In this document: positions 8,360 through 13,776 of the stretch, in pieces
Layout: every line of letters starts with the position of its first letter
Position numbering within the stretch: the stretch's first letter is position 1
Notes under the pieces: generated by a model
What the model saw: only the letters and a program-made list of their open reading frames with translations
Databases searched by the model: none
What the model was told of the DNA's origin: nothing
Program-made: the position numbers and the translations under genes
Origin: Actinopolymorpha cephalotaxi
GTDB taxonomy: Bacteria; Actinomycetota; Actinomycetes; Propionibacteriales; Actinopolymorphaceae
Direction: 5' to 3'
NCBI RefSeq assembly: GCF_013408535.1
Contig: NZ_JACBZA010000001.1
Coordinates: 3,866,850 to 3,930,849, forward strand
Length of the DNA stretch: 64,000 nucleotides

Positions 8360-10057
8360 ATGGGGCGCACAGACGAGATTGCCGACAGGTACGTCGACGA
8401 CTACGCCGCCGCCGATCCGGTGAGCGCGACGTTCGCCGGCATCGCGGGGTACGACGACCAGCTCACCGACTACTCCCCCGAGGGCTTCGACCGGCGGGCC
8501 GAGCTGGCCCGTGCGGCGGTCCGCGAACTCGAGCGGACCGAGCCACTGGACGAGCGGGAGACGGTCGCCCGGGCGGCCATGCTCGAACGCCTCGGTCTCG
8601 AGCTCGAACGCCACGACGCCGGTGTCACCACCAGCGACCTCAACGTCGTGGCGAGCCCGCTGCAGGACGTCCGCGGCGCCTTCGACCTGATGCCCACCGA
8701 CAGTGAGGCGGCATGGGCGACGGTGGCGGCCCGGCTGGCGCGGGTTCCCGAAGCGCTCGACGGCTTCCGGCGCACGCTCGCCGAGGCCGCCGCCGACGGC
8801 CGGGTCTCGGCCCGTCGCCAGATCGACGCCTGTGCCGACCAGTGCCGGTCCTGGCTGCCGCCCGAGGACGACTTCTTCGGCACGCTGGTCGCGCAAGCCG
8901 AGGTTGACGGCGAGGGCGGCGTCGCCGCCGGGTCCACTGTCGGTGCGGGCCTACGGGCCGATCTCGCCCGGGGCGCGGAGGTGGCCAGGCAGGCGGTGGC
9001 CGACTTCGAACGCTTCCTGCGCGACGAGCTCGCGCCGAAGGGACACGCGACCGACGGGGTGGGCGAGTCGCAGTACGCCCTTGCCTCCCGGTACTTCCTG
9101 GGTGCCCGGGTCGATCTCGCGGAGACCTACGCGTGGGGCTGGGAGGAGCTGACCCGGATCGAGACGGACATGCGTGGTGTCGCCGACCGGATCGTTTCCG
9201 GCGGCACCGTCGCGGACGCCGTGACCGCGCTGGAGGCGGACCCCGCGCGCCGGATCGCGAACAAGGACGCCTTCCGCGAATGGATGCAGGAGCTCGCCGA
9301 CCACACCGTCTCCGAACTCGCCGGTGTGCACTTCGACATCCCGGAGGAGATCCGCCGGATCGAGTGCCGGATCGCGCCCACCAGCGACGGCAGCATCTAC
9401 TACACCGCGCCGAGTGAGGACCTCGCCCGCCCGGGCCGGATGTGGTGGTCGGTGCCCAAGGGCGTCACGACGTTCTCCACCTGGAAGGAGGTGACCACCG
9501 TCTTCCACGAGGGCGTACCCGGTCACCACCTGCAGGTCGCGCAGACCGTCGTACGCAAGGACCTCCTCAACCGCTGGCAGCGCCTGCTGTGCTGGGTCTC
9601 CGGGCACGGTGAGGGCTGGGCGTTGTACGCCGAACGCCTGATGGACGAGCTCGGCTACCTCGACGAACCCGGCGCGAAGCTCGGCATGCTGGACGCGCAG
9701 GCGTTCCGGGCCGCGCGGGTGGTGGTCGACCTCGGCCTGCACCTGGGCTACCCGATCCCGCCGAACGCGTCCGGCTGGCGGGTCGGCGAGCGGTGGACAC
9801 CCGACGTGGCGCTGGAGTTCATGCTGGCCCACACCCGGATCGACGAGGACTTCCTGCGCTTCGAGGTGAACCGCTACCTCGGCTGGCCGGGACAGGCACC
9901 GTCGTACAAGGTGGGTGAGCGGATCTGGCTCGCGGCTCGTGAGGACGCCAGGGCACGCAAGGGTTCGGCGTTCGACCTGAAGGAGTTCCACCGCGCGGCG
10001 CTCGACCTCGGCTCGCTCGGCCTCGACCCGCTGCGGGACTCTCTCGCCCGCCTCTGA
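8360..10057 (+). CDS. DUF885 family protein, putative metallopeptidase
   Basis: A 565-residue member of the DUF885 family, whose members are thought to be zinc-dependent carboxypeptidase-like hydrolases. The N-terminus (DEIADRYVDDYAAADPVSAT) is typical, and the putative metal site HEGVPGHHLQ lies near residue 390, with a conserved GHGEGWALYAE segment after it. There is no signal peptide, so it is cytoplasmic. The ATG at 8360 was chosen for its upstream TAGGCT box and because the family similarity begins there; an ATG at 8333 is possible. It diverges from the frameshifted gene, and a hairpin lies just past its stop codon. The physiological substrate is unknown. Confidence 0.85.
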   Translation: MGRTDEIADRYVDDYAAADPVSATFAGIAGYDDQLTDYSPEGFDRRAELARAAVRELERTEPLDERETVARAAMLERLGLELERHDAGVTTSDLNVVASPLQDVRGAFDLMPTDSEAAWATVAARLARVPEALDGFRRTLAEAAADGRVSARRQIDACADQCRSWLPPEDDFFGTLVAQAEVDGEGGVAAGSTVGAGLRADLARGAEVARQAVADFERFLRDELAPKGHATDGVGESQYALASRYFLGARVDLAETYAWGWEELTRIETDMRGVADRIVSGGTVADAVTALEADPARRIANKDAFREWMQELADHTVSELAGVHFDIPEEIRRIECRIAPTSDGSIYYTAPSEDLARPGRMWWSVPKGVTTFSTWKEVTTVFHEGVPGHHLQVAQTVVRKDLLNRWQRLLCWVSGHGEGWALYAERLMDELGYLDEPGAKLGMLDAQAFRAARVVVDLGLHLGYPIPPNASGWRVGERWTPDVALEFMLAHTRIDEDFLRFEVNRYLGWPGQAPSYKVGERIWLAAREDARARKGSAFDLKEFHRAALDLGSLGLDPLRDSLARL

Positions 10058-10953: not shown

Positions 10954-11400
10954 CTAACTGGCGCCGCTCCTCGCCGTCAGAGCCAGAACACCGAATTCCA
11001 GGACCACCGACAGCAAGGCGAACAACGGATACCAGCGGTATTTCCACTGCGCGGCGAACCAGCCCGTCCACGCGAAATAGCAGGCGAGGCCCCCTAACAG
11101 AGTCATCACCCCGAAACCCCAGTCCGCTGCTTCCAAACCGCGCTGCAGCCTGAACCAGATCCCGATTACGGCGATCAGCAACCCGAGAACCGTCGGGTAC
11201 ATCACGAAGAAACGTAGGTCGTCGAAGGAGCGATATCCGAGTCCTCGCCGGAACGCGGCTCGTCGGGGAGACCGATCCTCGCCGTTTTCCCGTTCGGCTC
11301 GTTCGAGCTCCTCGATGCTGCTGCGCATCCGGCCGTATCGATAGACCTTGCCCATCGTCAACAGGAAATTGTCAAGCATTACGTTGAGACGAATCGCCAC
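10954..11400 (-). CDS. Small membrane protein, AQWKYRWYP paralogue 1
   Basis: I do not recognise the family. The 148 residues show a charged cytoplasmic N-terminal third (SSIEELERAEREN, about 28-40) followed by three hydrophobic segments, about residues 64-83, 92-112 and 121-140. The motif AQWKYRWYPLF lies between the second and third. The same motif and topology recur in the two genes upstream, so these are tandem duplicates. The start at GTG 11398-11400 is uncertain; ATGs at 11379 and 11355 are alternatives. By eye it is less GC-rich than its surroundings, and the secretion-linked genes at 12.3-13.8 kb lie nearby. Confidence 0.65.
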   Translation of the reverse strand: MAIRLNVMLDNFLLTMGKVYRYGRMRSSIEELERAERENGEDRSPRRAAFRRGLGYRSFDDLRFFVMYPTVLGLLIAVIGIWFRLQRGLEAADWGFGVMTLLGGLACYFAWTGWFAAQWKYRWYPLFALLSVVLEFGVLALTARSGAS

Positions 11401-11646
11401 GTAAGGTTTCCGGCCGGACGATGTACAGGGTGCTGAACGTCAGGACCAGAGCCACGATGGTGAACAGCGGGTACCAGCGGTACTTCCACTGCGCGTTGTA
11501 CCAGCCCGTCCAGCCGAAGTAGACGCCTGTGGCAGCCAGGCACGCTCGAACCACTCACGCTCCTCGATGCTGGTGAGCATTCTGCGAGTGCGAAGCACCT
11601 TACTCAGCAGCGAATGTGCCTTGTCGAACACCCACCGCCTACGCAC
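11372..11646 (-). pseudogene. Decayed copy of the AQWKYRWYP membrane protein (paralogue 2)
   Basis: From 11646 the reading frame begins like the paralogues (RTRRMLTSIEE, compare RNGRMRKSIAD), then runs into shadow sequence. A second frame picks up the family again from about 11550 (VYFGWTGWYNAQWKYRWYP, then a hydrophobic tail) and ends at 11372. About 50 residues that carry the first membrane segment in the other copies are missing at the junction, and the frame is shifted, so the gene is broken by a deletion. Its 3' end overlaps the start of paralogue 1 by 29 bp. The 61-codon 3' fragment could still be translated, but that is unproven. Confidence 0.65.
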
Positions 11647-11649
11647 TTC

Positions 11650-12105
11650 TTACGCGGCGGAGTACATGAGCACGTAGGTGAGGACTATCGCCGCTACCGC
11701 GAACAGCGGATACCACCGGTACTTCCACTGTGCCTTGTACCAACCCTTCCAGCCGAAGTAGCAGGCCACCAGTGCCAGAGCGCTCACCGCGATCGACGAC
11801 CCCTTGTTGTCAACGCCGTTCCTCAGCCTTGCGTACACGGAAGCTAGTGAGACCAACGCGAGGGCCAGCGTGAGCGTCATGACGTGAAGCCGGAGGCTGT
11901 CCGCCGACTGGATGCCAAGTGCGCGCCGGGATGCTTTCCGGCGAGGAGACTTCACCGAGCCGCGTTCCTCCTCGGCACGTTCGACATCGGCGATGCTCTT
12001 GCGCATGCGTCCGTTCCGGAAAACCCTGTCCGAGAACGACAGAAACCTGTCGAGTACCTCACGAAGGCCTGTGAGGACACCCATCGTCTCCCTCGCTCTC
12101 CCCAT
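11650..12105 (-). CDS. Small membrane protein, AQWKYRWYP paralogue 3
   Basis: Unrecognised family, 151 residues, intact and parallel to paralogue 1: a charged N-terminal region (KSIADVERAEEERG), an SPRRKASRRALG linker (SPRRAAFRRGLG in paralogue 1), then three hydrophobic segments with AQWKYRWYPLF between the last two. The start could be the ATG at 12105 or the one at 12084. It is the first gene of the array and faces a 194-bp spacer that carries DnaA-box-like sites. Tandem paralogue arrays beside secretion genes are often immunity genes; that reading is inference only. Confidence 0.65.
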   Translation of the reverse strand: MGRARETMGVLTGLREVLDRFLSFSDRVFRNGRMRKSIADVERAEEERGSVKSPRRKASRRALGIQSADSLRLHVMTLTLALALVSLASVYARLRNGVDNKGSSIAVSALALVACYFGWKGWYKAQWKYRWYPLFAVAAIVLTYVLMYSAA

Positions 12106-12299: not shown

Positions 12300-12614
12300 A
12301 TGAGCTTCAGTGTTGCCCCGGACGACCTGGACGGCTTCGCTCACCTGCTCAGGCGAGCAGGTGAGGATGCCGAAGCACTTCACGCTCACCTTCGACGGTA
12401 CGGCGAGATCCCGCCCGCCTCGCAGGGTGCAGCCCTGATCTTCGGCGGAACCCACCAGGATCTGGTCAACGCGTTGACCAGTCACGCTCTCACCCTGACC
12501 CGTCTGCTCGACGCCGCGCGTACCCAGGTTCACTCAGCCGCGACAAGCTATCGGACGGTCGACGATGCGGCGGCTGCCCGGCTTGACGCTGCCCTACCCC
12601 CAGCGACTCGCTGA
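12300..12614 (+). CDS. EspC-like (type VII secretion-associated) small protein
   Basis: A 104-residue, largely helical protein resembling the EspC family of ESX secretion-associated proteins: short N-terminal strand FSVAPDDL, then alanine/leucine-rich helices and no signal peptide. Such proteins are usually secreted with WXG100-type partners. GAAGG lies upstream of the ATG, and the WXG-like gene begins 9 bp after its stop, so the two are translationally close. No ESX secretion ATPase (EccC) is in the window, so export would depend on one elsewhere. The family call rests on pattern only. Confidence 0.6.
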   Translation: MSFSVAPDDLDGFAHLLRRAGEDAEALHAHLRRYGEIPPASQGAALIFGGTHQDLVNALTSHALTLTRLLDAARTQVHSAATSYRTVDDAAAARLDAALPPATR

Positions 12615-12623
12615 GCCACACTC

Positions 12624-13421
12624 GTGAACTCCAATCCAGCTTCGAAGCCGCACAGCGGTACCTTCTCCGATGCCGTCGAGCCCACCTCAATGCTCGTCAC
12701 ACCGAACGGCATCAACGGATACTCCGAGACTCTCCTCGATTCTGTGGACCAGATCATGTCCCTGGTCAGTCCGTCGGCGTGGATCCTTGAGATCGTCTAC
12801 GGAACTCTTGCGGTCGATCCGTTCCAGGAAGTGGTCAAACGTCTAGGCGGAGACTGGAACTACTTCGCCGACTGTGCCGACCTCTGGCGCATCCTGGGTG
12901 ACACTCACCGGGCCATCGCCACGAACTTGCGACGTGGGAACGCTGTCCTGGACCAAACCTGGAACGGCCGCGCCGCCGACACCGCCTTCGCCTACTTCCA
13001 CGACCTGACAGGCCATCTCGACGCGATGGGCAACACCCTGCACCGGTGCGCGAAAGAGTACGAGCGGTTGACCCTGCTGGTCTGGTACGCCGTCAAGGGC
13101 CTGGGCGCCGGGCTGCAAGCGTTGATAGACCTCGCGCTCACCATGGCGATTGCCGCCGCTGCCGGCGGCGCCACGGCCGGCACCGGGTTCGGACCAGCAG
13201 TAGCGGCTGCGATCATCGCCCTGCAGGCCACCCGAATGATTCGAGTGTGGGACAAGATCGCGGACTACCTGACAGTGTTTGAAGCAGGAGTCTTCGGGGT
13301 TGGTGGTGTCGTCGCCGAACTGCGCTTTGTCGCAGAACACCTTCCGCAGCCACCGGCGAGTCCGGGGCTATCCACGGCTCCCCCGACTGGTGACTGGAAT
13401 ACACATGGCCATGGGTTCTGA
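12624..13421 (+). CDS. WXG-like protein with hydrophobic C-terminal half
   Basis: A 265-residue protein of uncertain function. The middle carries LDQTWNGRAADTAFAYFHDL (about residues 112-131), the WxG turn between two helices typical of ESX/WXG100 and LXG substrates. It is followed by a Gly/Ala-rich hydrophobic region (about 165-205) that may insert in membranes. Unlike polymorphic toxins it has no recognisable C-terminal toxin domain and ends in a Pro-rich tail. The GTG at 12624 lies 9 bp after the EspC-like gene; an ATG at residue 23 is an alternative start. It overlaps the next gene by 17 bp. A secreted effector or structural partner are both possible. Confidence 0.6.
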   Translation: MNSNPASKPHSGTFSDAVEPTSMLVTPNGINGYSETLLDSVDQIMSLVSPSAWILEIVYGTLAVDPFQEVVKRLGGDWNYFADCADLWRILGDTHRAIATNLRRGNAVLDQTWNGRAADTAFAYFHDLTGHLDAMGNTLHRCAKEYERLTLLVWYAVKGLGAGLQALIDLALTMAIAAAAGGATAGTGFGPAVAAAIIALQATRMIRVWDKIADYLTVFEAGVFGVGGVVAELRFVAEHLPQPPASPGLSTAPPTGDWNTHGHGF

Positions 13422-13776
13422 GGAGCACCCGGGCCCGCCGTCGGAGTCGTATTACGAGAAGGAGTTCGCAGAGCTTCGGCGGCTCGCCGACGATCCCGGC
13501 CGTGAGCGTCTCCTCCGTCGGTCACTCGACATCCTCGCCGGTGACCGGAGCCGTCCCGTGCTGCGCGACTTCGCCGAGGACGTACGCCACGGGCGGATGG
13601 GCCTGGCCGAGGCCGCTGCCTCCTCCGCCTACACGGAGGAGTTCACCACCCACGTGCGCGGCTTCCTCGACTGGTACACCCAGCTGTCCGACGACGAGCG
13701 AGGGGCACAGGCCGCCGCCGGAGAGGCCTGTCTGGCGTCGCTCACCGAGAACGACGACCTCGAGGAGGCCTCATGA
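13405..13776 (+). CDS. Small hypothetical protein, third gene of the WXG-like set
   Basis: Unrecognised acidic 123-residue protein, probably soluble and helical (YYEKEFAELRRLADDPGRER, then AEDVRHGRMGLAEAAASSAY). The ATG at 13405 gives a 17-bp overlap with the WXG-like gene; an ATG at 13411 is an alternative. The overlap suggests translational coupling and a joint role, for example as a chaperone or immunity partner, but nothing in the sequence proves it. By eye its GC content returns to that of the core genes. It ends 20 bp from the convergent galactonate dehydratase gene. Confidence 0.6.
   Translation: MAMGSEEHPGPPSESYYEKEFAELRRLADDPGRERLLRRSLDILAGDRSRPVLRDFAEDVRHGRMGLAEAAASSAYTEEFTTHVRGFLDWYTQLSDDERGAQAAAGEACLASLTENDDLEEAS

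What the first reader, a model, noticed from the sequence alone, without database searches (positions are those of the whole stretch)
12300..13776. Three-gene EspC-like / WXG-like / small acidic protein cassette without its own secretion machine
The first two genes are 9 bp apart and the second and third overlap by 17 bp. The first looks like an EspC substrate. The second has a WxG turn (QTWNGRAADT) and a hydrophobic Gly/Ala region but no toxin tail, and the third is unknown. No EccC/EccB genes are in view. Together with the divergent membrane paralogues it could be an orphan type VII effector-immunity module. This is the best candidate here for an undescribed system.
Basis: inference. Interest (0 to 1): 0.7.

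Follow-up and report, generated by a model that had tools for sequence, protein, structure and literature searches.

The report
Widespread toxin-less type VII secretion cassette
Three small overlapping genes in a soil actinobacterium (genus Actinopolymorpha) look like a conserved kit for exporting a protein pair through the cell's type VII (ESX) secretion machine, and the third gene belongs to an undescribed family that probably acts as the pair's dedicated helper.

Summary
The three genes are real and lie where stated. All three, in order, recur in four of five other Actinopolymorpha genomes (gene 3 frame-broken in one); the fifth has an empty site. The cassette also occurs in related families and in genomes elsewhere in the phylum. 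In many relatives genes 1 and 2 are one polypeptide. Gene 1 is EspC/PE-like and carries the YxxxD export motif. Gene 2 is a WXG/PPE-like hairpin (WxG invariant in 17 aligned sequences) with a hydrophobic segment and a short tail, without toxin domain. Gene 3 is a small acidic helical protein of a family absent from Pfam, NCBIfam and PADLOC. It also sits in GH-E nuclease toxin loci that have their own Imm33, so it is probably not the immunity protein. The cassette is not orphaned: the genome's ESX machine lies 2 Mb away, and all 30 genomes with gene 2 relatives have EccC (121 of 197 overall). Best reading: a type VII substrate pair plus a dedicated targeting or chaperone factor. Membrane activity, with neighbouring small membrane proteins as immunity, is possible but unproved. 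The evidence is comparative only; no secretion was tested.

The parts
12300..12614 (+). gene 1: EspC/PE-like helical partner, 104 aa, with export motif Y84-R-T-V-D88
   Evidence: The profile of the five Actinopolymorpha gene 1 proteins finds the N-terminal domains of fused relatives (L113 E 1e-13, L013 E 4e-9) and the separate gene 1 of L115 (E 4e-13); L115 gene 1 passes the Pfam EspC cut-off. P0001 itself is below the cut-off (12.9 vs 23.5 bits).
12624..13421 (+). gene 2: WXG100/PPE-like hairpin (WxG at 113-115), hydrophobic segment 162-180, proline-containing tail ending DWNTHGHGF; no toxin domain
   Evidence: PF25547 E 4.5e-4 (below cut-off); family profile matches solved EsxA structures at E 1e-5; low-confidence model.
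13405..13776 (+). gene 3: acidic (net charge -13) all-helical protein of an undescribed family; candidate chaperone or targeting factor
   Evidence: Overlaps gene 2 by 17 bp.
11650..12105 (-). divergent small membrane protein (AQWKYRWYP family), 151 aa; possible but unproved partner or immunity
   Evidence: Family found only in G000, G001, G002 and G004 of 197 genomes.
11372..11554 (-). 60-aa ORF that keeps only the C-terminal part of the membrane family; apparent remnant
10954..11400 (-). second full membrane paralogue, 148 aa; the copy closest to the single copies in the other Actinopolymorpha (69-80% identity)

Best explanation
The cassette encodes a type VII (ESX) substrate pair and its dedicated cytosolic helper. 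Gene 1 and gene 2 form a helical heterodimer: gene 1 supplies the C-terminal YxxxD/E export arm and gene 2 the WxG turn, the two halves of the bipartite signal known from PE-PPE and LXG-Lap pairs. Gene 3 binds gene 2, or the pair, before export, either shielding the hydrophobic segment or tip or guiding the pair to EccC; it would do the job that EspG, EspK or Lap proteins do elsewhere. The pair leaves through the ESX machine encoded 2 Mb away. Since gene 2 has no catalytic tail but keeps a hydrophobic helix and a short C-terminal tail, it probably acts at the cell surface or on membranes. Shown by sequence: homology, co-conservation, gene 1-gene 2 fusions, motifs, ESX presence. Inferred: complex formation, secretion, gene 3 function, final activity.
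For: Fusions: relatives encode genes 1 and 2 as one protein (L006, L007, L010-L013, L015, L113), and the profile of gene 2 relatives, which does not contain P0001, finds the separate window gene 1 at E 2e-9. Motifs: W113 and G115 invariant in 17 sequences; YxxxD/E, or F in place of Y, at the end of the gene 1 domain in nearly all relatives. Gene 2 family profile hits EsxA structures, and 13 of 17 members match Pfam WXG100 at E <= 0.1. Gene 3: a profile of four Actinopolymorpha copies, iterated, recovers ORFs next to gene 2 relatives; found adjacent across the order and in other families of the phylum. Machine: EccC, EccB and others in G000; 30/30 genomes with gene 2 relatives have EccC against 121/197 overall, p 9e-8 uncorrected for kinship; the four genomes outside the order also have it. 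Gene 3 persists in a toxin operon type that has its own Imm33. No EspG reaches the Pfam cut-off in 197 genomes. The bipartite WXG plus Y/FxxxD/E signal and small helical targeting factors are established for LXG and PE-PPE systems (PMC9600955; PMC11217815).
Against: P0001 and P0002 score below the Pfam gathering cut-offs on their own. The AF2 model of gene 2 is poor (pLDDT 47.6, three sequences), and BAR-domain proteins score as high as PPE in the fold comparison. No complex was modelled. The EccC association has little power inside Nocardioides-type genomes, nearly all of which have EccC. Gene 3 shows no detected similarity to any known chaperone, and in L113 it precedes gene 2 instead of following it. 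One related fusion (L103) lacks the aromatic residue of the export motif. The cassette is far from the ESX locus in the window genome.
Confidence: 0.7

Rival explanations
1. Antibacterial membrane-active effector with membrane immunity. The hydrophobic region of gene 2 inserts in the membrane of competitors, as EsxX or TspA do; the small polytopic membrane proteins next to the cassette (AQWKYRWYP family here, other families elsewhere) protect the producer; gene 3 is chaperone or cytosolic immunity. This is compatible with the export part of the best explanation and differs in the final activity.
For: TM-like segment 162-180 in gene 2 and such segments in nearly all relatives that carry a clear gene 3; GATAGTGFG zipper at 182-190; small membrane ORFs within 900 bp of cassettes 14/59 against 3/116 for distant genes, Fisher p 2e-5; EsxX and TspA precedent with membrane immunity proteins and, for EsxX, soluble immunity (PMC12744356); tandem membrane copies in the window.
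Against: Glycine zippers are not enriched in the family (7/29 against 5.6 in shuffles). The membrane test was post hoc, on crude gene calls and partly related loci. The AQWKYRWYP family is missing where the cassette is present in A. pittospori. No toxicity data.
Confidence: 0.25
2. Effector-immunity pair in which gene 3 is the immunity protein for gene 2.
For: Small acidic protein directly downstream, overlapping gene 2; also found in the immunity-gene position of toxin operons.
Against: The same family accompanies unlike toxins that have their own immunity genes (GH-E with Imm33; a WXG100_2 protein with another tail and a cysteine-rich ORF) and toxin-less gene 2; it precedes gene 2 in L113.
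Confidence: 0.12
3. Degraded toxin locus: gene 2 is a polymorphic type VII toxin that lost its C-terminal domain.
For: WXG100_2 toxins with GH-E or other tails and gene 3 neighbours exist in the same order.
Against: Toxin-less versions are intact and conserved across families, several ending in a similar short tail (YDHPG-like) rather than ragged ends; gene 2 is 52-60% identical between species as an open frame.
Confidence: 0.06
4. A cellular helical protein unrelated to secretion whose WxG and YxxxD are coincidental.
For: Sub-threshold Pfam scores; helical fold matches to BAR domains.
Against: Invariant WxG in 17 sequences, family profile hits to EsxA, fusion with EspC-like domain, presence in ESX-linked loci, 30/30 EccC co-occurrence.
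Confidence: 0.03

Closest known systems
PE-PPE-EspG substrates of mycobacterial ESX systems
   Same: Short partner with YxxxD/E plus longer hairpin protein with WxG, adjacent genes, a third dedicated protein; gene 2 model aligns to PPE41 (Z 10.9, rmsd 3.0 over 157 residues, low-confidence model).
   Different: No PE or PPE N-terminal motif in these proteins; no EspG over the cut-off in the order; gene 3 is about 120 aa, acidic and helical.
EspB (single chain) with EspK, and the EspA-EspC-EspD proteins of ESX-1
   Same: Fused gene 1-gene 2 relatives resemble EspB, a single chain carrying both WXG motif and signal sequence (PMC11217815); gene 1 resembles EspC.
   Different: Gene 3 has no detected relation to EspK or EspD (no Pfam match); EspA/EspD membership was not tested directly.
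LXG effectors with Lap1/Lap2 targeting factors (T7SSb, Bacillota)
   Same: Three-part pre-secretion logic: small helical partners encoded beside a WXG-like protein, with F/YxxxD motif on a partner (PMC9600955).
   Different: Different phylum and machine (T7SSa-type EccC/EccB); no LXG domain hit; gene 2 lacks a toxin tail; gene 3 is not a Lap homologue by the searches done.
WXG100_2 polymorphic toxins of Actinomycetota (CpnT-like N-terminal module)
   Same: Same WXG100_2-like module and hydrophobic region; gene 3 family shared with some of these loci.
   Different: No C-terminal toxin domain in the window protein.

Membership tests
WXG100 / WXG100_2 superfamily (gene 2) | helical hairpin with WxG at the turn | tested here: met
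   W113/G115 invariant in 17 sequences; model helices 78-112 and 116-183 flank it (low confidence)
WXG100 / WXG100_2 superfamily (gene 2) | Pfam gathering score reached by the protein itself | tested here: not met
   P0002 20.7 bits vs 27 (PF25547), 14.8 vs 27.3 (PF06013); the relative L113 reaches 36.0 vs 27.3. Hence called a relative, not a filed member
EspC family PF10824 (gene 1) | Pfam gathering score reached by the protein itself | tested here: not met
   P0001 12.9 vs 23.5 bits; homologous L115 gene 1 reaches 31.4
T7SSa secreted partner (gene 1) | YxxxD/E export motif after the second helix | tested here: met
   YRTVD in the window, YRSTD or YRRTE in orthologues; Y or F variant in nearly all relatives
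T7SSa secreted substrate | ESX machine in the same genome | tested here: met
   EccC, EccB, mycosin-like, EccE-like, WXG100 pair at 5.90-5.91 Mb
T7SSa secreted substrate | ESX-dependent secretion | not testable with these tools
   needs culture-filtrate assay with eccC mutant
PE-PPE-EspG | N-terminal Pro-Glu / Pro-Pro-Glu motifs | tested here: not met
   absent from the N-termini of P0001 and P0002
PE-PPE-EspG | EspG chaperone in the genome | tested here: not met
   PF14011: no match in G000, 0 of 197 over cut-off; the search had no positive control genome
Polymorphic toxin-immunity system | C-terminal toxin domain | tested here: not met
   no toxin family hit in P0002; protein ends soon after the hydrophobic region
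Polymorphic toxin-immunity system | dedicated immunity protein | tested here: inconclusive
   gene 3 unlikely; membrane neighbours enriched but post hoc
LXG-Lap | LXG domain and Lap families DUF3130/DUF3958 | tested here: inconclusive
   no LXG, DUF3130 or DUF3958 hit in the Pfam scans; weak fold data
EspA-EspC-EspD | homology of gene 3 to EspD | tested here: inconclusive
   no Pfam match pointing to EspD for any of 11 gene 3 proteins; no direct comparison made

The most novel reading that the evidence does not exclude
Gene 3 founds an undescribed family of dedicated type VII targeting or chaperone proteins of Actinomycetota, shared by toxin-less and toxin-bearing WXG100_2 substrates, and the toxin-less pair is a membrane-active effector whose immunity is provided by adjacent small membrane proteins.
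Probability: 0.22. Interest if true: 0.68.

Novelty: new variant of a known kind. Interest (0 to 1): 0.52.

Why it matters
How non-mycobacterial actinobacteria recognise and use ESX substrates is little known. A gene family that travels with WXG-type substrates, with or without a toxin domain, is a direct candidate for the missing EspG-like or Lap-like factor where EspG is not detected. The three-gene cassette is small enough to reconstitute, and natural gene 1-gene 2 fusions give ready single-chain versions for structural work.

Tried and rejected
A genome-contig scan with P0002 alone found no relatives; a diverse alignment had no stretch conserved enough to scan; a genus alignment found A. 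rutila and A. pittospori only. No plasmid record matched gene 2 or gene 3. Gene 3 against solved structures: weak hits mostly to designed proteins, treated as chance. Foldseek and VIA-align with the gene 3 model gave no match with E below 0.7 or Z above 5; this does not show a new fold. A glycine-zipper test of the gene 2 family was negative. Two gene 3 profile hits were rejected as false: G015 (GspF/T2SSF-like ORF by eye, L099) and G388 (long helical ORF, L117). PADLOC and PHROGs gave nothing useful (one weak tape-measure match, as helical proteins often give). Loci from the genome search were not sent to structure prediction because its stated rule does not list them; hence the shallow alignments. 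The Nocardioides-type subgroup with fused gene 2 (L011 type) has a downstream acidic ORF, but its relation to gene 3 is borderline, so it was not counted as gene 3.

Full report
OBSERVATION. The three ORFs, their spacing (9 bp; 17-bp overlap) and the WxG turn are as described. The window is G000:C1:3866850-3930849 of a 6.86 Mb genome. Local G+C is about 65% against 69-74% in nearly all of the rest of the window.

CONSERVATION IN THE GENUS. Genes 1-2-3 occur in this order in G001-G004, between a DUF885-type gene and a mandelate racemase-like gene (names from sequence, not tested). In G005 these two flanks are about 380 bp apart instead of 3.7 kb: an empty site. The insert differs in content: three membrane ORFs plus the cassette in the window, one membrane ORF plus the cassette in G001, G002 and G004, cassette without membrane ORF in A. 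pittospori. In A. pittospori gene 3 is split over two frames, so it is either broken or mis-sequenced.

WHAT GENES 1 AND 2 ARE. On their own they score below Pfam cut-offs. As a family the signal is clear. W113 and G115 are invariant in 17 relatives. The profile of these hits EsxA structures at E 1e-5, and 13 of 17 members match WXG100 at E up to 0.1. A relative in another family, L113, passes the WXG100 cut-off (36.0 vs 27.3), and the separate gene 1 of L115 passes the EspC cut-off (31.4 vs 23.5). In L006, L007, L010-L013, L015 and L113 the gene 1 domain is fused to the N-terminus of gene 2. The two profiles find each other's partners: the gene 2 family profile hits the window's separate gene 1 at E 2e-9, and the gene 1 profile hits the N-terminus of L113 at 1e-13 and of L013 at 4e-9. 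Such fusions argue that the separate proteins bind each other. The gene 1 domain ends in YxxxD/E (window YRTVD; orthologues YRSTD, YRRTE; L013 YRTTD; L113 YRETD; L115 YRTTD), with F in L010 and the L011 type, and one exception in L103. The AF2 model of gene 2 is weak (pLDDT 47.6). It aligns to PPE41 with Z 10.9 and rmsd 3.0 over 157 residues, but BAR domains score alike, so the fold comparison only agrees with the sequence and does not prove it.

GENE 3. It is acidic (net -13) and modelled as six helices (pLDDT 71.5, two sequences), with no match in Pfam, NCBIfam, PADLOC, PHROGs or PDB that stands out. A profile started from four Actinopolymorpha copies and iterated over all ORFs of the fetched loci picks up ORFs next to gene 2 relatives. 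Genome searches: 23 of 197 order relatives (one false, G015) and four credible genomes outside the order among 376. Its neighbours are of three kinds. (i) Gene 2, separate or fused, in G000-G004, G007, G043, G055, G068, G076, G115, G172 (twice), G174 and G189, and outside the order in L113, L114 and L115; in L113 gene 3 comes before gene 2. (ii) Type VII toxin loci in Nocardioides-type genomes: WXG100, then a WXG100_2 protein with a toxin tail, then immunity-like genes, then gene 3. L111 has WXG100_2 (47.7 bits) and GH-E nuclease (73.5 bits); in the parallel locus L104 the 116-aa ORF is Imm33 (72.4 bits) and the 190-aa ORF is ankyrin-like. (iii) Close to the ESX core: about 4 kb from EccC in G074 and 6 and 20 kb from EccC in G324. 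A gene that persists with different toxins, beside their own immunity genes, and with toxin-less gene 2 is better explained as a secretion partner than as immunity.

THE MACHINE. G000 holds EccC (EccCa 973 bits, EccCb 870 bits), EccB (281 vs cut-off 154), a mycosin-like protease (265 vs 278.75), an EccE-like protein (102.6 vs 108) and a WXG100 pair in one block; EccD was not identified in my ORF picks. All 30 genomes with a gene 2 match have EccC over the cut-off against 121 of 197 (p 9e-8), and all 22 credible gene 3 genomes do (p 1e-5). These p-values ignore kinship, and within Nocardioides-type genomes nearly all have EccC. The four genomes outside the order also have it. No EspG reaches the cut-off in the 197 genomes; a few sub-threshold matches lie near EccC in Nocardioides-type genomes, and the control set held no positive genome.

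HOW IT PROBABLY WORKS. In PE-PPE pairs the PE partner carries the C-terminal signal, the pair forms a helical bundle, and EspG chaperones shield a hydrophobic tip and help set the target system; in LXG systems small helical Lap proteins bind the LXG domain and one carries FxxxD (PMC11217815; PMC9600955). The cassette has the same layout with an unrelated third protein. I infer a gene 1-gene 2 dimer, gene 3 bound in the cytosol, and export by the ESX machine 2 Mb away. What the pair does outside is open. The TM-like segment at 162-180, the enrichment of small membrane proteins around such cassettes (14/59 vs 3/116, p 2e-5; post hoc) and the EsxX/TspA precedent (PMC12744356) allow a membrane-active effector. 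The lack of a conserved glycine zipper and the absence of the local membrane family in A. pittospori argue for caution.

VERDICT. Observation confirmed; interpretation partly supported: not orphan, gene 3 probably not immunity, but a real and, as far as I could search, undescribed third component. New variant of a known kind. All functional claims are inferences from comparison. The literature search was limited to the open-access library, so an existing description in a subscription journal cannot be excluded.

Noticed in passing
window 10954-12105: Three tandem copies (one a 60-aa remnant) of a 2-3 TM protein family with an AQWKYRWYP motif, found in 197 genomes only in four Actinopolymorpha; no convincing family match in any library.
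   Followed up: partly
window 13350-13418; C-termini of gene 2 relatives in L006, L008, L019, L113, L115: Several toxin-less gene 2 proteins share a short C-terminal tail (YDHPG-like; DWNTHGHGF in the window) after a proline-containing stretch; function unknown, argues against random loss of a toxin domain.
   Followed up: partly
L052 about 9371-9806; L077: In A. pittospori gene 3 is split between two reading frames: broken gene or sequencing error.
   Followed up: partly
L011, L012, L016-L018, L021-L024: Nocardioides-type subgroup: fused gene 1-gene 2 protein, a 132-aa acidic ORF, then a secreted protein that looks like the DUF1906/Rv2525c family (recognised by eye, not tested).
   Followed up: no
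L132 and L133 (G324, 9.7 Mb genome): Cassette and a second gene 3 copy lie within about 20 kb of EccC together with several more WXG-like ORFs: a possible effector island.
   Followed up: partly
L111, L104, L093: WXG100_2 protein with GH-E nuclease tail, ankyrin-like ORF, Imm33 and gene 3: type VII antibacterial toxin locus of Nocardioides-type genomes.
   Followed up: partly
G018, G040, G052, G136, G151, G189, G191: Sub-threshold EspG-like matches, several about 10-15 kb from EccC: possible distant EspG in Nocardioides-type ESX loci.
   Followed up: no
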